Part shown: positions 10,216 through 42,072 of the stretch, in pieces
Layout of the letters: the number at the start of each line of letters is the position of its first letter
Position numbering within the stretch: the stretch's first letter is position 1
Assembly: GCA_027460525.1 (NCBI GenBank)
Contig: JAPZAS010000032.1
Coordinates: 91,913-155,912 of the forward strand
Reading direction: 5' to 3'
DNA: 64,000 nt
From: Candidatus Methanoperedens sp.
GTDB taxonomy: Archaea > Halobacteriota > Methanosarcinia > Methanosarcinales > Methanoperedenaceae
The notes under the pieces: model-generated
The model's input: the letters and a program-made list of their open reading frames with translations, nothing else
Databases searched by the model: none
What the model was told of the DNA's origin: nothing
Program-made: the position numbers and the translations under genes

Positions 10216-10411
10216 GGGGCTGTGGCCTAGTCCGGCATGGCGACGGGCTCCAGCGGAAAACCGGTTAATCCGGGTGTTATGATGAGCAACGGGTCTGCTG
10301 AGCAAGCCTGACGAGGTAAGCGATGATGAGCCGTTGGAGCACTGAACATGTGCTGCTCATGGCGTTTTCGGAGAGACCCGTCGATCGTGAGTTCAAATCT
10401 CACCAGCCCCA
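10216..10411 (+). tRNA. tRNA-Trp (CCA) with a 122-nt intron
   Basis: The acceptor GGGGCTG (10216-10222) pairs with CAGCCCC (10404-10410); discriminator A is at 10411. The anticodon stem ACGGG/CCCGT is split by an intron after position 37 (G10253), and exon 2 resumes at A10376. The loop is C-T-CCA-G-A. A canonical bulge-helix-bulge is visible: CTCC (10248-10251) pairs with GGAG (10370-10373), with 3-nt bulges AGC and AGA placing both cuts at the expected sites. The T-arm is GTGAG-TTCAAAT-CTCAC. Confidence 0.96.
10254..10375 (+). ncRNA. Intron-encoded box C/D guide RNA for tRNA-Trp 2'-O-methylation
   Basis: The intron carries box C ATGATGA (10279-10285), D' CTGA (10298-10301), C' ATGATGA (10323-10329) and D CTGA (10342-10345). 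The guide before box D (10331-10340) pairs over 10 positions with exon 1 plus the intron start. Its fifth nucleotide upstream of D (10337) faces C34. The guide before D' (10289-10297) pairs perfectly over 9 nt with spliced positions 35-43, and its fifth nucleotide (10293) faces C39. This matches the known haloarchaeal tRNA-Trp intron system, which modifies positions 34 and 39. Confidence 0.93.
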
Positions 10412-34500: not shown

Positions 34501-37431
34501 ATGGTCAGGAGAATTGAAGTCGGTTTTAAAAAAGGGATGAGGGATGCGCTGGGTGAAAGCATTAGAAAAAGGATAGTAGAAGACCTGCATATTAATGTGG
34601 ATTCTGTCAGAACTGTTGAAGTCTATACCCTTGATGCAACTCTATCAAATGAGCAGGTAAAGCTTTTGGGGGAAAAACTATTCGCGGACCCTGTGATACA
34701 GGTTTTTTCTGATGAACCCCTGGCAGAGAATTTTTCATGGCTGATAGAAGTGGGCTTCAAGCCAGGTGTGACGGATAATGTCGGGACGACGGCAAAAAAA
34801 GCCTCAGAAGACATACTGAAAATCCCGTTGAGTGGAGTTTATTTTTCAAAGCAGTACCTCATCAATGGGAACATCACAAAGGAAGAGGTCAAGCGTATTG
34901 CAGGAGGGCTTCTTGCAAACAGCATGATTGAACGATGGGTAATAGCAGGCATCAAGGAATGGAATAAAGAAAAGGGTGTGCGTCTTCCTCTCCCTGTGGT
35001 GAAAGGAAAACACACACCATCGGTCTTGACACTGAACTTAGAGGCAAGTGATAATCAATTAAAAGAACTAAGCAGGCAGCGGCTTCTTGCCCTGAACCTT
35101 TCGGAGATGAAGGCAATCCAAAAATATTTTAACAAAGCCGATGTTAAAAAAGATAGAGAAGAGTTTTGTCTTTCCCTGCCCACCGATGTGGAGATTGAGG
35201 CGCTTGCCCAGACATGGTCAGAACACTGCAAACACAAGATTTTCAACTCGCAGATAACCTATACGGATGAAAAAGGTACGAAGACTATACATTCGCTTTT
35301 CAATACTTTTATAAAGCGAGCAACTAAGGAGATCAATAAACCCTGGCTTGTTTCTGTTTTTACAGACAACGCAGGCGTGATCAAATTCAACCGCGATTAT
35401 AACCTTGTTATGAAGGTGGAAACACATAACACGCCTTCTGCCCTTGACCCTTACGGCGGCGCCATTACCGGTATTGTGGGCGTTAACCGCGACCCGCTTG
35501 GCACGGGTATGGGGGCAAGACTGATTTTCAATACGGATGTTTTCTGTTTTGCCTCGCCGTTCTATGATAAGGAGTTGCCGCCTCGTCTTCTCCATCCCAA
35601 GAGGATATTTGAAGGGGTGAGGCGCGGCGTGGAGCACGGCGGAAATAAGAGCGGCATCCCCACGGTGAACGGCTGCATAGTCTTTGATGACAGGTATCTC
35701 GGAAAGCCTCTGGTGTACTGTGGCACGGGGGGGATAATGCCTTCAACAATAAACGGGAAGCCATCGCATATCAAGGAAATCCACACCGGCGACCTTATAG
35801 TGATGACCGGAGGTCGAATAGGGAAAGACGGCATACACGGCGCTACTTTCTCGTCCCTTGAGTTGGATGAGGATTCCCCTGTAACAGCGGTGCAGATAGG
35901 TGACCCCATAACCCAGAAGAAGATGCTGGATTTCCTGCTTGAAGCGAGGGATAAAGGACTGTACAACGCCATCACCGATAACGGCGCAGGAGGATTATCC
36001 TCCTCCGTGGGAGAGATGGCGCAACTCTCGGGAGGCTGTCTCATAGAACTTGAAAACTGCCCATTAAAATACGCTGGTCTTGACCCCTGGGAAATACTGC
36101 TTTCGGAATCGCAGGAGAGAATGACCCTTGCTGTTTCCCCTGATAAGATTGATGAATTCTTAGAGCTTGCAAAAACAAGGGATGTTGAGGCTACTGTCAT
36201 CGGTACCTTTACAGACTCTGGAAAATTCCATGCAATGTACGGCGATAAAACCGTAGCTTATCTGAATATGGATTTCCTGCACAGAGGTCTTCCAACCATG
36301 AAACTCGATGCACGCTGGGAAACCCGTAAATTCGAAGAACCCGTGCTCGGGACTGTGGAGCTGACCTCAGCCCTTAAGACCCTCCTCTCTCGCCTCAATA
36401 TCTGCTCAAAGGAATACGTTATCCGGCAGTACGACCATGAAGTGCAGGGCGGTTCAGTGCTTAAGCCGCTAACAGGCGATGGACCGAGCGATGCCGCAGT
36501 TCTAAGACCACTGCTCGGCAGCATGGAAGGTGTGGTGGTGGCGAACGGCATCTGTCCCAGATACGGCGACATTGATACCTACCACATGACCGCCGCCGCC
36601 ATAGATGAAGCCGTGCGCAACCATATATGCGTGGGAGGCTCGTTCGATCACTTAGCTGGGCTTGATAATTTCTGCTGGTGCGACCCTGTGAAATCAGAGA
36701 AAAATCCTGACGGCGAATTCAAACTTGCGCAGCTTGTGAGGGCGAACATGGCTTTGTACGAATACACCAAAGCCTACGGCGTGCCCTGCATCTCGGGAAA
36801 GGACAGCATGAAGAACGATTATATCATAGGCAGGAGGAAAATCTCAATCCCGCCCACGGTGCTTTTTTCGACGATAGGCAAGATAGAGGATGTCAGGAAA
36901 GCGGTGACGATGGATGCCAAGAGACCGGATGACAGGATTTACGTCCTTGGAATGACGAAGGATGAACTCGGCGCTTCTGAGTATTTCGCTTCTCTTGGTT
37001 ACATTGGAAATGACGTGCCGAAAGTGGATGCTGGTTCTGCGAAGAAGCTCTATATTGCGCTTGAAAAAGCCATCCGTGAGGGCGCTGTCGCCTCGTGCCA
37101 CGACTGCTCAGACGGCGGTCTTGGAGTGGCGCTGGCTGAGAGCGCGTTCTCAGGAGAACTTGGGATGACGGTCGAGCTGACAAAGGTGCCTGTGGAGAAC
37201 ATCAGGCGTGCTGATACGATACTGTTTTCAGAATCCCAGAGCAGATTCGTGGTGACTGTGGCGCTGGATAATGTTGAGAGGTTCGAGGCGATAATGAAAG
37301 GCAATGTGTTTGCTGATATAGGCATGGTGACACAGCAGCAGAATTTCGCGGTGATGGACGGGGAGAAGGTGGTGCTGAGCGCGGGGATAGATGAGCTTAA
37401 GGAGGCGTGGCAGAAGACGCTGCGGTGGTAA
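34501..37431 (+). CDS. purL: Phosphoribosylformylglycinamidine synthase subunit, PurS-PurL type
   Basis: The 976-residue protein (ATG at 34501, with AAGGAAC upstream) begins with two PurS-like ferredoxin modules, RRIEVGFKKGMRDALGE and SWLIEVGFKPGVTDN. The synthetase part follows with SEHCKHKIFNS, VKVETHNTPSALDPYGG in the form MKVETHNTPSA, and GCIVFDDRY. It converts FGAR to FGAM using glutamine-derived ammonia from PurQ. PurQ is encoded at 41287, separated by a 3.8-kb AT-rich insertion. A start at 34465 is less likely because it lacks a ribosome-binding site. Confidence 0.95.
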   Translation: MVRRIEVGFKKGMRDALGESIRKRIVEDLHINVDSVRTVEVYTLDATLSNEQVKLLGEKLFADPVIQVFSDEPLAENFSWLIEVGFKPGVTDNVGTTAKKASEDILKIPLSGVYFSKQYLINGNITKEEVKRIAGGLLANSMIERWVIAGIKEWNKEKGVRLPLPVVKGKHTPSVLTLNLEASDNQLKELSRQRLLALNLSEMKAIQKYFNKADVKKDREEFCLSLPTDVEIEALAQTWSEHCKHKIFNSQITYTDEKGTKTIHSLFNTFIKRATKEINKPWLVSVFTDNAGVIKFNRDYNLVMKVETHNTPSALDPYGGAITGIVGVNRDPLGTGMGARLIFNTDVFCFASPFYDKELPPRLLHPKRIFEGVRRGVEHGGNKSGIPTVNGCIVFDDRYLGKPLVYCGTGGIMPSTINGKPSHIKEIHTGDLIVMTGGRIGKDGIHGATFSSLELDEDSPVTAVQIGDPITQKKMLDFLLEARDKGLYNAITDNGAGGLSSSVGEMAQLSGGCLIELENCPLKYAGLDPWEILLSESQERMTLAVSPDKIDEFLELAKTRDVEATVIGTFTDSGKFHAMYGDKTVAYLNMDFLHRGLPTMKLDARWETRKFEEPVLGTVELTSALKTLLSRLNICSKEYVIRQYDHEVQGGSVLKPLTGDGPSDAAVLRPLLGSMEGVVVANGICPRYGDIDTYHMTAAAIDEAVRNHICVGGSFDHLAGLDNFCWCDPVKSEKNPDGEFKLAQLVRANMALYEYTKAYGVPCISGKDSMKNDYIIGRRKISIPPTVLFSTIGKIEDVRKAVTMDAKRPDDRIYVLGMTKDELGASEYFASLGYIGNDVPKVDAGSAKKLYIALEKAIREGAVASCHDCSDGGLGVALAESAFSGELGMTVELTKVPVENIRRADTILFSESQSRFVVTVALDNVERFEAIMKGNVFADIGMVTQQQNFAVMDGEKVVLSAGIDELKEAWQKTLRW

Positions 37432-37517
37432 AATTTTATTATATGAACAGTTTCGAAAGTTTTATCAAGGATATGTTCTTACGTAGGTTGATTTTCTCTA
37501 TTTAGAGTGTATAGTTT

Positions 37518-38210
37518 ATGGATTCACGTACAACTATGCTTTTCAAGCGTATTCAGAGTGATGGTATCTCTTTAAAGGATATTATAAAAAAAATAAAAGA
37601 AAATGAATATTCTAAATCTAAAGGCGAAGGTTTCGCCATTAAGGAAATCGGAGAGAATATTATTTATGCAAATTACATATTTCAGTATCCTTCATTCATA
37701 AATAAGTTCGACGACGAGAGCTTAGATATTAAAAAAGAAAAAATAATAAATAAGGCAGTTATTAGCTTTTCAATAGACTTTTCACACAATCTCATAGTAG
37801 TATTTTCAAATTCCTCAAATGCACGTCGTTTATTGACGGAATTAGGCAAAATAACGGATTTTGAAATGCCCATAGAAGATGTCAATTTTTCGCCACTAAA
37901 CTTGCTTCCAAAATTCAAAAAATCAAATAATATTTTGAATATCACCTCTCTAAGAATTAGAAATTTCAAGTTCAATCAAAAGCTTTCAGGAACATTCTGG
38001 GTAAGAATATTGGAACAACAAACCGCCAAAGAATTGATAGATAATTATTCTGGAGAAATTATTTACATGGGCGCATCTACTAAATTTGATGGAAGAAATG
38101 TAAGCATGGGCTTTTATGAGAATGGAAGTCTCATGATATTTGATAAGCTTAATAATCTATACGATATTATAGATGAGATTAAGAATATATTATTCTTGGA
38201 GAGCAACTAA
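37518..38210 (+). CDS. Unknown protein A of a three-gene AT-rich cassette
   Basis: The 230-residue protein is not recognised and has no membrane segment or signal. It begins with a Lys-rich helix (SLKDIIKKIKE), then a run of beta strands (IIYANYIFQY, AVISFSIDF, NLIVVFSNS), a helix (ARRLLTELG), and the strand TSLRIRNFKF. The same order appears in protein C (39134-40198), so the two seem to share a domain. Codons are strongly AT-rich. The next gene begins directly at the stop codon. The set suggests a mobile defence-like operon. Confidence 0.75.
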   Translation: MDSRTTMLFKRIQSDGISLKDIIKKIKENEYSKSKGEGFAIKEIGENIIYANYIFQYPSFINKFDDESLDIKKEKIINKAVISFSIDFSHNLIVVFSNSSNARRLLTELGKITDFEMPIEDVNFSPLNLLPKFKKSNNILNITSLRIRNFKFNQKLSGTFWVRILEQQTAKELIDNYSGEIIYMGASTKFDGRNVSMGFYENGSLMIFDKLNNLYDIIDEIKNILFLESN

Positions 38211-39134
38211 TTGCCAGAAGAACAGCCCTATAGGGGAAATAGATGGACAAAACACGCAGTAGAGCTACTTGGTAACTTGGGGTGGAATTTGAAAGGAGAT
38301 ACAAACATGGACATACCTTGCGCTATCCACACTGGACGCAAAGTTGGTCATGGAATTGATGCTTTTTTGACTTATTTCGATCCATATCAAAATTGTGAGA
38401 TAGGAGTTATAACTGAAACCAAGTATTACGCATGGAATAATATAAATAAAGACTTTGTTCAAGAATCTGTTGATAATCTAATTCAGGCAGTTGAATGCGT
38501 TCCGCATTCTGAAGAGTTTACGCAGAAGCTAAATTTTAACCATGCAAAGGTCAATACAGGACTTTTAATGATATGGTCACATGACAAGTTCGAGAAGGGC
38601 AAATTTGAAGACTACTTGCAAGGGGTCAAAATACCACAAAAACACAATATGTCAAGAATCTATGTATTGAACAATTATGATATTTTAAAACTATATTCTA
38701 TAATCGACGTTATCAATGGATTAACGAATGAGTTAAATGGAAAAGGGAAATTCGATATTTATTATCCAAGTTATCCTGAGAGTGACTCATTAAGAGGCAA
38801 GAACTTTGTTGGTCTTGAGTATTTCAATTCAAAATTCATTTTCGGAAAAATGGTAAGGATTAAGGAATTTCCAAACGGTGGTTCTATGCCTATCAATGTC
38901 ACAGTCGTTCTTTATTTTGACAAATTGACTACCGCATGCTTGAAGTATATGTATTTAGCTTTAAGAAGGTTCCAGTTAACTGACGAGGAAATATGGGTCT
39001 ATCATTATGAAGACCCTATAGACTATAGAGGACAAACAAGTGAATTTGAAAGGCAATATGGAGAAGGCCAGAAAAAACAGATAATTTTTAAACCTATGAA
39101 CCGCTTCAAAGACGTACCTTGGAGGCTCGCGTAA
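38211..39134 (+). CDS. PD-(D/E)XK-like nuclease domain protein (cassette protein B)
   Basis: The 307-residue protein starts with TTG at 38211, preceded by GGAGAG inside the end of gene A. An N-terminal helix (WTKHAVELLGNLGW) leads to GHGIDAFL and VITETKYYAW, giving Asp50, Glu69 and Lys71: the D-(x)18-ExK spacing of Mrr-like restriction endonucleases. The C-terminal 150 residues (KNFVGLEYFNSKF, CLKYMYLALRRFQ) are unassigned and may recognise a target or partner. It is placed between genes A and C without gaps. Nuclease activity is inferred from motif only. Confidence 0.75.
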   Translation: MPEEQPYRGNRWTKHAVELLGNLGWNLKGDTNMDIPCAIHTGRKVGHGIDAFLTYFDPYQNCEIGVITETKYYAWNNINKDFVQESVDNLIQAVECVPHSEEFTQKLNFNHAKVNTGLLMIWSHDKFEKGKFEDYLQGVKIPQKHNMSRIYVLNNYDILKLYSIIDVINGLTNELNGKGKFDIYYPSYPESDSLRGKNFVGLEYFNSKFIFGKMVRIKEFPNGGSMPINVTVVLYFDKLTTACLKYMYLALRRFQLTDEEIWVYHYEDPIDYRGQTSEFERQYGEGQKKQIIFKPMNRFKDVPWRLA

Positions 39135-40198
39135 TGGAACTCCAAGAATTTTATCCGAATGATAGCGAGATCGATGACTTTTTCAATGAATTTATCAGTT
39201 TTGACAATGCCAGGGATTATTTTAAAAAAATGGGCATACTGTTTGCAACAAATAAACGCTCTGAAATAGCAAAATATGCATCAAGAATAGTTTTTGGCTA
39301 TGAAGATTTTGAAATGATGAAATCCATTACTGCAACTAAGCAGAATTATGATAAGGTCAGCGGATTTGAAATTAAAACAAGCAAAAGCATTCAAGAACTT
39401 AAAGAAGCCTTCAATAGCGGTGAAGTGATAAAAAATCAAAATAAGTTGACTATTAGGGAGTCGATAGTAGACCCCCATACGCACAGCATCACAGTTTCAT
39501 ACTCTTTTGAACGAAAAACCCCAGGCAAAATGAATCTGATAAGTGCTGAGGAGAGAAAAGGTGAATTCAGAATAGAGAAGGGAGACGACGAGACAGGCAA
39601 AATAGTTGTTTTCAATCATAGCAAAAATGAAGATTATGGCGCAGTAAAAGAAATTATCACGGCGATAGGGCAGAATGAAGAAACAAAAATGGATATTGTT
39701 CCTATAACACTGGAACGATTTGATGTAAAGGGAAAAATCGACTTTATCGATAAAGTTCTTCAATATGAATATAAAAAGTGGAAACTGGAAGAAGTAGTAA
39801 CTATAAGGGTTAGAAAAGGTGAAGAATCTGAGGAGGAATTGGAAGAAGCGGATAAGAAATTCTTGGAAGGGATTAATGATGCAATCCTGCATGGACACAA
39901 TTTACGGACTAATCCCTTTGTTATTAAATGCGAAAAGTCAGGTTATTACTTTCCAAGTATAATACTGAAAATGGCTCACAAAACTGAGCCTTATAAAATT
40001 AGCCTTGAAGTTCAATTTAAATTCCGCCCCGATATGCCTGAAATCAATATTGTGGACTCTTTTATGGTTGAGGAAAGCGCAGAAAAATCATATGTTCTGG
40101 AGAAAGAGTTCAGAAAACAAACTCTGGATAATTTTTTCCATGATATTATTGGAATTTATAATAATGTAGCTGGAGCTGAAAAAAACATCGTTAGTTAA
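39134..40198 (+). CDS. Unknown protein C of the three-gene cassette
   Basis: The 354-residue protein (ATG at 39134 sharing one base with the previous stop; GGAGG about 10 nt upstream) is not recognised. Residues about 85-230 follow the same helix-strand order as protein A: SIQELKEAF, KLTIRES, SITVSYSFE, KIVVFNHS, AVKEIITAIG, VTIRVRKG. It has about 80 extra residues in front and a further beta-rich region with HGHNLR behind. An acidic stretch (EESEEELEEA) separates the halves. It may be a sensor or scaffold for the nuclease; this is inference. Confidence 0.75.
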   Translation: MELQEFYPNDSEIDDFFNEFISFDNARDYFKKMGILFATNKRSEIAKYASRIVFGYEDFEMMKSITATKQNYDKVSGFEIKTSKSIQELKEAFNSGEVIKNQNKLTIRESIVDPHTHSITVSYSFERKTPGKMNLISAEERKGEFRIEKGDDETGKIVVFNHSKNEDYGAVKEIITAIGQNEETKMDIVPITLERFDVKGKIDFIDKVLQYEYKKWKLEEVVTIRVRKGEESEEELEEADKKFLEGINDAILHGHNLRTNPFVIKCEKSGYYFPSIILKMAHKTEPYKISLEVQFKFRPDMPEINIVDSFMVEESAEKSYVLEKEFRKQTLDNFFHDIIGIYNNVAGAEKNIVS

Positions 40199-40409
40199 TT
40201 AACTGCTTTACAGCCCCAGCCCTTTAATTTCCCAGGTCAAAGCTGCATCGATAGCGCCACAAATTAATACAATTGAATTTATTAAATTAAATGAATCTCT
40301 ATCTCAAATGTTAATGCGAGTTCAATCGAGTTCCTGTCAATCCGAGGGTTTTGAAAGTAAACAGTTATTACATAATACGTTTATAATAATACAAACTCCG
40401 GTGAAAATT

Positions 40410-40715
40410 ATGACAGAAAGCCTTGTGCGCGAAAGTATTGATATTCTCTCAAAATCACGATACTTTGGCAGCAAAAATAAACTGCTTGACGAAGCGGTCA
40501 GAACTTTACTGGAAGTCAAGCCTGCCCTGAAAATAGAAATCGCTCTTGAACTTTATAAAAAAGGTACTGTCTCTTTAAGCAGGGCTTCAGAAATTGCAGG
40601 CGTATCGACTCAGGGATTTAAAGAAATACTTGCAAGCAGGGGCATGGTCAGGGTTATCAAAGCCCCTTCCAGGGAAAAAATCAAAAAAGAAGTTAAACTG
40701 ATATTACACGGATGA
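40410..40715 (+). CDS. UPF0175-type antitoxin
   Basis: The 101-residue protein (ATG at 40410; a longer frame from 40308 lacks support) has the UPF0175 layout: an N-terminal helix pair (LVRESIDILSKS), then a helix-turn-helix ALELYKKGTVSLSRASEIAGVS. Members of this family are encoded next to PIN-like toxins. The stop overlaps the toxin start by 4 nt. CGGTGA upstream may serve as ribosome-binding site. It ends the AT-rich island between purL and purQ. Confidence 0.85.
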   Translation: MTESLVRESIDILSKSRYFGSKNKLLDEAVRTLLEVKPALKIEIALELYKKGTVSLSRASEIAGVSTQGFKEILASRGMVRVIKAPSREKIKKEVKLILHG

Positions 40716-41206
40716 AAATGCCAGTCATCTTCGATGCAGACATTCTCAGCACATTTGCAAAAACCGACACTTTATTGTTGTTAAAAAAGCTCTTCTCAAA
40801 ACACGATGTTTACATAACCCCTAAAATTTATGAAGAACTCAGCGTTCCTCTGGATTATGGTTACTCTTTTCCATTGAAAATATTTGAACAGTTCAAGATT
40901 CTATATCCAGACGAGGAAGAGCAGAAAACGTATCGTGGATTTATAAAAGCCAATCGGCGCCTTGGAAGAGGCGAACTGGAAGCAATCTCCATTTGCATGA
41001 ACCGGAAATATTATTTCTCGTCAATGGATGAAGTTGCCATATCATTCGCAGAAGTCAATGATGTTACAACAATAAGTTTGCATTCAATTTTAAGATCATT
41101 CTGGGAGTCTAAGATTTTAACTAAAAAAGAAGTGCAGGAACTAATATCTGAAATTGAGCAAAAAGATAATACAAGAATCAAGGATACTCAAAGGATTCTT
41201 CAATGA
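40712..41206 (+). CDS. DUF3368/PIN-like toxin
   Basis: The 164-residue protein has the PIN-fold acidic residues: Asp8 and Asp10 in VIFDADILS, Glu in GRGELEAI, and Asp in SSMDEVAI. This matches the DUF3368 branch that pairs with UPF0175 antitoxins. It would cleave RNA when freed of its partner. The 4-nt overlap with the antitoxin gene is typical. All acidic residues seem intact, so it is probably functional. Confidence 0.87.
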   Translation: MKMPVIFDADILSTFAKTDTLLLLKKLFSKHDVYITPKIYEELSVPLDYGYSFPLKIFEQFKILYPDEEEQKTYRGFIKANRRLGRGELEAISICMNRKYYFSSMDEVAISFAEVNDVTTISLHSILRSFWESKILTKKEVQELISEIEQKDNTRIKDTQRILQ

Positions 41207-41286
41207 GATATGAGATGTCTGTTTAACTCGTGTCTTACAAAGACTAATGCTAAGTATAAGGAGAAACACTCAGAATTAACAATAAC

Positions 41287-42072
41287 ATGACCCCGAAAGT
41301 CCTCGTCCTCACAGGCTACGGCATAAACTGCGATATGGAGCTTGCGCACGCCTTCAGGCTTGCCGGTGCGGATGCAGAGCGCGTCCATCTCACCGACCTT
41401 ATCAATGGCACCCCGAAACTCTCGGATTTTAATATTGTGGCGCTCCCGGGCGGCTTCTCCTTCGGGGATGATATTGCCTCGGGCAAGGTGCTTGCCAACA
41501 TGCTCAAATACAATCTGGGCGCGCAGATTCAGGAATTCATAGATGCAGGAAATCTTATTATCGGCATCTGCAATGGTTTCCAGGCAATGGTAAAGATGGG
41601 GCTTCTGCCTGCTTTTGATCGGGATTATGCCGCGCAGGAAGTCACCCTCACTTTCAATGACTCGGGAAGATTCGAGGACAGGTGGGTGCACCTTAAAGCC
41701 AATAAAAGCTCAAAGTGCCTTTTTACGAAGGGAATAAACAGCATCTACCTTCCAGTACGACACGGCGAGGGGAAGTTCGTGGCTAAAAACCCGCAGGTGC
41801 TTGCAAGATTGAAAAAAAATAACCACATTGTATTCCAGTATGTGGACAGAGAGGGAACCTCTGGCGGATATCCGTTTAATCCCAACGGCTCTGTGGATAA
41901 CATCGCAGGGATATGCGACGAGACCGGGAGGGTTTTCGGGATGATGCCGCACCCGGAAGCCTTCACGCACAGGACAAACCACCCGGCATGGACAAGGGAG
42001 GAGCTGCCTGAGGAAGGGGCAGGGGTGGCGATATTCAGGAATGCTGTGGAGTATGTGAGGGAGAGGTTATAA
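41287..42072 (+). CDS. purQ: Phosphoribosylformylglycinamidine synthase, glutaminase subunit
   Basis: The 261-residue protein is a class I glutamine amidotransferase: LPGGFSFGDDIASGK, the nucleophile Cys in GICNGFQAM, and MMPHPEAF bearing the catalytic His and a Pro-Glu motif. It feeds ammonia to PurL (34501). In many archaea purL and purQ are close; here a cassette of five AT-rich genes lies between them. The downstream gene is a small hypothetical protein. Confidence 0.95.
   Translation: MTPKVLVLTGYGINCDMELAHAFRLAGADAERVHLTDLINGTPKLSDFNIVALPGGFSFGDDIASGKVLANMLKYNLGAQIQEFIDAGNLIIGICNGFQAMVKMGLLPAFDRDYAAQEVTLTFNDSGRFEDRWVHLKANKSSKCLFTKGINSIYLPVRHGEGKFVAKNPQVLARLKKNNHIVFQYVDREGTSGGYPFNPNGSVDNIAGICDETGRVFGMMPHPEAFTHRTNHPAWTREELPEEGAGVAIFRNAVEYVRERL

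What the first reader, a model, noticed from the sequence alone, without database searches (positions are those of the whole stretch)
37518..40198. Undescribed-looking three-gene nuclease cassette between purL and purQ
Three AT-rich genes are joined without gaps: A stops at 38210 and B starts with TTG at 38211; B and C share one base at 39134. B has a D50-x18-E69-x-K71 pattern of PD-(D/E)XK nucleases. A and C are unrecognised. The set sits inside a purine locus that is otherwise conserved, and a toxin-antitoxin pair follows, as in defence islands. This is the best candidate for a new system in the window.
Basis: partly seen in the sequence, partly recalled or inferred. Interest (0 to 1): 0.85.

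Follow-up and report, generated by a model that had tools for sequence, protein, structure and literature searches.

The report
Archaeal clamp-plus-nuclease phage-defence trio
Between two purine-synthesis genes this archaeon carries three joined genes related to a known but unexplained bacterial virus-defence trio (3HP); structure predictions suggest that two of the proteins likely form a DNA-gripping clamp, and conserved residues suggest that the third is likely a nuclease that would cut the DNA they hold, which gives the trio a testable mechanism.

Summary
A (37518-38210), B (38211-39134) and C (39134-40198) are abutting AT-rich genes. B, C and A are homologues of Hp1, Hp2 and Hp3 of the Rst_3HP/PADLOC 3HP anti-phage system, reported to stop phage P1, mechanism unknown. 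The archaeal set is a divergent branch: only Hp1 matches its PADLOC model directly (E 1.9e-12); C and A are linked through PHROG families and profile comparison. Gene order is A-B-C, not Hp1-Hp2-Hp3 (B-C-A); A-B-C also occurs in two haloarchaeal plasmids, a Thermosipho-labelled MAG and a gut element. It is rare: the only full-length case among 31 genomes of the genus. New here: AlphaFold models of A (pLDDT 91) and C (83) both match E. coli RdgC, a DNA-encircling protein whose fold lambda RexA and kinetochore Iml3-Chl4 share; no sequence relation was detected. B keeps a PD-(D/E)XK motif in 26 of 26 aligned proteins. Most likely: A and C form a Rex/RdgC-like DNA clamp that recognises invading DNA and directs nuclease B. 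Fold similarity is shown; complex, trigger and cutting are inferred; B's fold was not modelled. New variant of a known kind.

The parts
37518..38210 (+). gene A, 230 aa, Hp3 homologue; predicted RdgC-like two-domain DNA-clamp fold
38211..39134 (+). gene B, 307 aa, TTG start, Hp1 homologue; predicted PD-(D/E)XK nuclease
   Evidence: PADLOC Hp1 E 1.9e-12; NCBIfam GapS4a 47 bits, cut-off 270; phrog_7059 E 1.4e-22
38358..38423 (+). stretch from the codon of D50 to that of K71 of B (E69 between), the candidate active site
   Evidence: D50 26/26, E or D at 69 26/26, K71 26/26
39134..40198 (+). gene C, 354 aa, Hp2 homologue
   Evidence: phrog_6531 E 2.4e-15; profile comparison with phage-type Hp2 E 4.1e-8
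39341..40174 (+). part of C (residues 70-347) with the RdgC-like core
39134..39331 (+). part of C (residues 1-66), helical N-terminal region of unassigned fold
   Evidence: secondary structure; lies outside the region spanned by the listed structural matches
40308..40715 (+). UPF0175 antitoxin-like gene following the trio (neighbour, not part of the system)
   Evidence: PF03683 E 1.4e-10; PDC-S70 E 9e-7
40712..41206 (+). partner toxin-like gene of the pair (neighbour)
   Evidence: PADLOC PDC-S70 E 1.1e-8; no Pfam PIN match
37432..41286 (.). 3855-bp stretch between purL and purQ; in three relatives the gap is 110-156 bp

Best explanation
The three genes are an archaeal relative of the 3HP anti-phage system in which A and C are predicted to form a ring- or horseshoe-shaped DNA clamp that would recognise invading DNA and direct B, a likely nuclease, to cut it. 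Shown by calls: homology of B, C and A to Hp1, Hp2 and Hp3, co-inheritance, the conserved D-(E/D)xK motif of B, and an RdgC-like fold for the models of A and C. Inferred: that A and C pair with each other (as Iml3 does with Chl4) rather than each with itself; that they sense an invader's DNA or replication intermediate as RexA is thought to do; that B is catalytically active and is the effector; and that the target is viral or plasmid DNA rather than the host chromosome.
Against: No sequence relation of A or C to RdgC was found (best hhalign E 0.072; no PF04381 match in the genome, among the 7 families listed for A proteins, or among the 25 of 36 families shown for C proteins). The structural alignments have high rmsd (5.5-5.7 A); Foldseek's TM-score for A is about 0.5, and for C Foldseek does not list RdgC among its 50 best and gives Iml3 only 0.23. 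C is acidic overall (pI 5.26). No complex was modelled, B's fold was not modelled, and profile searches of solved-structure sequences gave nothing under E 0.4. The archaeal set fails direct PADLOC Hp2 and Hp3 matching.
Confidence: 0.55

Rival explanations
1. Abortive, toxin-like mode: B is a promiscuous nuclease held in check by A and C; infection releases it and it destroys host DNA too, so that the infected cell dies.
For: RexAB, an analogue through the RexA fold, works by effector release and growth arrest; the trio sits beside a toxin-antitoxin-like pair.
Against: Nothing tested here separates targeted cutting from host killing; the constant company of the three genes fits either reading.
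Confidence: 0.22
2. A mobile-element housekeeping set: A and C regulate recombination as RdgC does and B processes DNA ends, serving replication or integration of the element rather than defence.
For: Phages themselves carry RdgC: 385 of 50,697 records match E. coli RdgC. An annotated integrase lies next to or near the trio in a Vibrio phage and a Halobacterium plasmid, and recombinase-like frames, by my reading, in L002 and L007.
Against: The bacterial trio comes from an accessory hotspot and protects against P1. In this window the trio stands between purL and purQ; I saw no integrase in the frames listed around it, by eye only.
Confidence: 0.13
3. A restriction-like system in which A and C read a modification or sequence mark and B cuts unmarked DNA.
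For: A nuclease with DNA-binding partners is the general layout of restriction systems (general knowledge).
Against: The three families found together hold no methylase that I could recognise; RdgC and RexA are described as non-specific binders.
Confidence: 0.07
4. A decayed passenger: the genes are intact frames but no longer active in this genome.
For: Rare in the genus and AT-rich relative to its surroundings.
Against: All three frames are open and the motif residues are kept.
Confidence: 0.03

Closest known systems
Rst_3HP / PADLOC 3HP (Hp1, Hp2, Hp3) of P2-like prophages
   Same: Three homologous adjacent genes of similar sizes; B matches the Hp1 model.
   Different: Gene order A(Hp3)-B(Hp1)-C(Hp2) instead of Hp1-Hp2-Hp3; the Hp2 and Hp3 models do not match directly; position 69 of B is E here, D in the ten phage-type rows; archaeal host; activity untested.
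Lambda RexAB phage exclusion
   Same: A and C are predicted to have the fold family to which RexA belongs (via RdgC); a DNA-binding part would be the sensor in both.
   Different: Two proteins of the fold instead of one; likely nuclease effector instead of the membrane protein RexB; RexA itself is not among the structural rows shown.
E. coli RdgC
   Different: No detectable sequence relation; RdgC is a homodimer-forming recombination protein; A and C are two different proteins beside a likely nuclease.
Kinetochore Iml3-Chl4 (CENP-L and CENP-N)
   Same: Two different proteins of this fold working as a pair; Foldseek's first match for C is Iml3, followed by kinetochore chains including CENP-N.
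GapS4a (GAPS4)
   Same: B matches the NCBIfam model at E 2e-12.
   Different: 47 bits against a cut-off of 270; A and C match no NCBIfam model at E up to 10.

Membership tests
Rst_3HP / PADLOC 3HP | three adjacent genes homologous to Hp1, Hp2, Hp3 | tested here: met
   PHROG links and profile comparison; three genes adjacent
Rst_3HP / PADLOC 3HP | direct match to the Hp1 model | tested here: met
   PDLC03004 E 1.9e-12
Rst_3HP / PADLOC 3HP | direct match to the Hp2 and Hp3 models | tested here: not met
   0 PADLOC families for A and C at E up to 10; no 3HP model among the matches of 15 C proteins scanned; a PDLC03005 search of the own genome found nothing, but no control genome rang
Rst_3HP / PADLOC 3HP | gene order Hp1-Hp2-Hp3 | tested here: not met
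   order is A-B-C = Hp3-Hp1-Hp2; 28 other loci with all three genes, Klebsiella and Vibrio records and related viral contigs, have B-C-A
Rst_3HP / PADLOC 3HP | anti-phage activity | not testable with these tools
   reported for the bacterial system only (PMC9122126, passages)
RdgC (Pfam PF04381) | match to the family profile | tested here: not met
   no match in own genome while E. coli control rang; not among the 7 families for 15 A proteins or the 25 of 36 shown for 26 C proteins; hhalign E 0.072 at best
RdgC/RexA/Iml3-Chl4 fold | structural match over most of the protein, above unrelated rows | tested here: met
RexAB | membrane effector RexB partner | not tested
   no transmembrane prediction was run
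CENP-L/CENP-N family | sequence family match | tested here: inconclusive
   one of 15 A-family proteins matches PF13092 at E 0.0074, level with unrelated families
PD-(D/E)XK nucleases | conserved D-(D/E)xK residues | tested here: met
   26 of 26 aligned B proteins
PD-(D/E)XK nucleases | nuclease core fold | not tested
GapS4a (NF047933) | score above the curated cut-off of 270 bits | tested here: not met
   47 bits

The most novel reading that the evidence does not exclude
3HP is a clamp-gated nuclease: two different RdgC/RexA-fold proteins form a heterodimeric DNA clamp that gates a PD-(D/E)XK nuclease, and the archaeal A-C pair is the nearest prokaryotic counterpart of the kinetochore's CENP-L/CENP-N heterodimer, so that a eukaryotic centromere-reading module grew out of an antiviral DNA clamp of archaea.
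Probability: 0.1. Interest if true: 0.92.

Novelty: new variant of a known kind. Interest (0 to 1): 0.62.

Why it matters
3HP was published as three genes without clear domains that stop P1, and a 2024 table files it under unknown mechanism (PMC10855318, passage). None of the papers listed by my searches (several lists were capped, and the library lacks most subscription journals) showed an explanation. Recognising two of its proteins as RdgC/RexA-fold DNA clamps and the third as a likely nuclease turns it into a concrete, testable machine, shows it in archaea and further bacterial elements with a second gene order, and raises the question whether DNA-clamp pairs of this fold, used in the kinetochore, are old in archaea.

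Tried and rejected
Undescribed system: rejected, because of PADLOC, PHROG and annotated Vibrio-phage matches. GAPS4 membership: rejected on the cut-off. Sequence descent of A or C from RdgC: looked for by blastp and by hhalign with 18 RdgC sequences, not found (17 of the 24 loci plus E. coli RdgC were used). A and C as detectable paralogues by sequence: not found (E 0.15). Profile searches of solved-structure sequences with A, B and C: nothing under E 0.4. Pfam gave only weak scattered matches: for A proteins; PF15008 (DUF4518) matched 8 of 26 C proteins (best E 1.5e-5); the four shown match in the N-terminal part, below the cut-off; not interpreted. The precomputed label PF26115.1 stands on 18 of 20 B relatives but is not in our Pfam copy, so its name stays unknown. 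The named-genome scan with the B profile matched 24 stretches, none a relative; a second one with the two haloarchaeal B proteins matched 399 stretches, one a relative; viral scans with C and with the haloarchaeal B pair found none. Ends of the 3.86-kb stretch: no 10-base match between the two 120-base ends; only short imperfect repeats. The N-terminal part of C is outside the listed structural matches, which proves nothing; lambda RexA is absent from the rows shown for A and C, which excludes nothing.

Full report
WHAT IS THERE. A (37518-38210, 230 aa), B (38211-39134, TTG start, 307 aa) and C (39134-40198, 354 aa) abut: A's stop is followed at once by B's start, and B and C overlap by one base. 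A UPF0175 gene and a PDC-S70-type partner follow. The window lies in an unnamed 2.4-Mb genome. One genome of the same phylum, G123, carries B at contig coordinates identical to those of Halobacterium sp. DL1, so the host is an archaeon; Methanoperedens is my guess from memory and was not tested.

THE SITE. purQ was matched in 29 of 31 genomes of the genus, in a few only in part. With 1.5-kb flanks purL was seen in 4 of 30 loci, one of them (L069) with only a 28-residue purQ match. Longer stretches were then fetched for 20 relatives: in 3 purL ends 156, 153 and 110 bp before purQ; in 17 purL was not in the fetched stretch. In this window the gap is 3855 bp. In the two relatives with the most similar purQ (86% each) the gap holds a short frame of nearly 50 codons (read by eye) that has no aligned counterpart in window 37201-41600. 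So the stretch looks like a replacement or insertion, but the locus itself is variable in the genus. No 10-base match was found between its two ends.

DISTRIBUTION. With the B profile 2 of 99 relatives match, own genome included; the other, in the same genus, is a 42-residue fragment at E 7e-4. Own genome is thus the only one of 31 of the genus with a full-length match. In 392 genomes of the phylum 3 match: own, one full-length (G123) and one fragment at E 5e-4. With a wider B profile 1 of 237 genomes of the class matches, own only; with the C profile 1 of 60 relatives, own only. Protein searches gave 4 hits for A, 20 for B and 18 for C, the window's own or near-identical entries included; six B and C hits have the same longest-contig length, which suggests but does not prove that they are neighbours.

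IDENTITY. B matches PADLOC Hp1 at E 1.9e-12 and NCBIfam GapS4a at E 2e-12 but far below its cut-off. A, B and C match phrog_5850, phrog_7059 and phrog_6531 at E 8e-8, 1.4e-22 and 2.4e-15. The trio of Klebsiella phage ST437-OXA245phi4.1 belongs to these same three PHROGs and matches PADLOC Hp1, Hp2 and Hp3 over full length (792, 820 and 521 bits). In Vibrio phage 1F53_PE003 the homologous genes are annotated Rst_3HP Hp1, Hp2, Hp3. Passages of Rousset et al. [quoted passage not shown] that this is Rst_3HP is my inference from the name and the hotspot. The DefenseFinder paper says that Rst_3HP lies mostly in prophages (PMC9090908, passage). hhalign of window-type against Klebsiella/Vibrio-phage-type profiles gives E 2.3e-5 (probability 76%) for A, 1.2e-17 for B and 4.1e-8 for C; nine cross-family controls give 0.022 or worse. 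Not all links hold: the upstream gene of viral contig L002 is not detectably an A (best E 0.065); gut L007 A against phage-type A gives 0.072 and gut C against phage-type C 0.0035. The haloarchaeal C and the L002 C do not match phrog_6531, and PADLOC matches none of the five L002 and L005 proteins tested.

GENE ORDER AND CO-INHERITANCE. Profiles of A, B and C were run on a window slice and 34 loci. All three are present in 33 of 35. The exceptions are L035 (contig ends inside B) and L002 (B and C, with a gene of A's size but no detectable similarity in A's place). Many loci are near-identical viral contigs, and many helped to build the profiles; L007 and L009 did not, and match all three. Order A-B-C occurs in 5: the window, two haloarchaeal plasmids (L005 Natronorubrum, L006 Halobacterium), a Thermosipho-labelled MAG (L070) and the gut element L007. 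Order B-C-A occurs in the other 28: Klebsiella and Vibrio records and viral contigs related to them. Thus 3HP has a second, A-B-C form outside that prophage group.

B. In 26 aligned B proteins W25, D50, P58, Y59, K71, G117, P186, S207, Y235 and Q255 are invariant, and position 69 is E in 16 and D in 10. D, then E/D-x-K after 18 residues, is the PD-(D/E)XK pattern (definition recalled).

HOW IT MOST LIKELY WORKS. Passages of the RexA structure paper (PMC11077077) describe one DNA-binding fold shared by lambda RexA, RdgC and the IML3-CHL4 pair: RdgC dimers ring DNA, and IML3-CHL4 heterodimers hold it in a horseshoe; a passage of PMC4080450 likewise links Chl4/Iml3 with RdgC and TBP. The RexA paper also reports no correlation between RexA's DNA binding in vitro and phage exclusion in vivo, which is a caution. 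Passages of the Pseudomonas RexAB paper (PMC12894663) describe RexA as the DNA-binding infection sensor and RexB as the membrane effector. The 3HP trio has two different proteins of this fold next to a likely nuclease. I infer that A and C pair on DNA, recognise a feature of invading or replicating DNA, and direct or release B to cut it: Rex-like sensing with a nuclease in place of RexB. Untested steps: pairing, DNA binding, trigger, B's activity, target. C's acidic pI (5.26) and the loose superposition speak against overconfidence.

LITERATURE. Searches for GAPS4, GapS4a, Rst_3HP, 3HP and RdgC with defence terms listed no paper that, from title and abstract, explains 3HP or links Hp2 and Hp3 to RdgC; several lists were capped (for example 12 of 27, 12 of 37, 15 of 41), and beyond ten papers I saw only the listing. 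A table in PMC10855318 files 3HP under unknown mechanism (passage). The 2026 survey of archaeal immunity (PMC12988326) has no '3HP' in its main text (supplements not read). The Asgard paper names 3HP once, among the less frequent systems in eukaryotic genomes (PMC11291487, passage). The AllTheBacteria preprint calls Rst_3HP broadly distributed at low frequency within species (PMC13370402, passage). The Phold paper reports a GAPS1-like protein in the same Klebsiella prophage; the passage does not say which gene (PMC12774648).

VERDICT. A real, co-inherited three-gene set of patchy distribution; not undescribed, but an archaeal, differently ordered variant of 3HP whose two unknown proteins are predicted to have a DNA-clamp fold.

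Noticed in passing
window 10216-10411 (+): Rfam finds a tRNA whose match spans the C/D-box RNA sR3, as for an intron-borne guide RNA; ARAGORN did not list it. That it is tRNA-Trp is recalled.
   Followed up: no
window 40308-41206: UPF0175 antitoxin-like gene with a PDC-S70-type partner directly after the trio.
   Followed up: partly
L073 and L075, purL-purQ gap: Two close relatives carry a short frame of nearly 50 codons (read by eye) between purL and purQ that has no aligned counterpart in the window.
   Followed up: partly
L005 9001-10302, 3' end: Both haloarchaeal C proteins are 433 aa; in Natronorubrum the extension is a helix-hairpin-helix domain absent from the window's C.
   Followed up: partly
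L002 1939-2643: In this viral contig the gene before B has A's size and place but no detectable similarity to A; a replaced or very diverged partner.
   Followed up: partly
phages collection: 385 of 50,697 phage records match E. coli RdgC; some of the matches shown are annotated as exonuclease.
   Followed up: no
N-terminal region of phage-type C proteins: Weak match to PF15008 (DUF4518) in 8 of 26 C proteins scanned, at about residues 10-104 in the four looked at.
   Followed up: no
L009 / NZ_CP013486 plasmid of Vibrio alginolyticus: A plasmid-borne trio in order B-C-A next to a Fic-family gene.
   Followed up: no
L039 2893-3895 (Vibrio phage 10N.237.312.G08_PE003): In this phage record the Hp1 region is annotated as two separate genes, only one of them labelled Hp1.
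   Followed up: no
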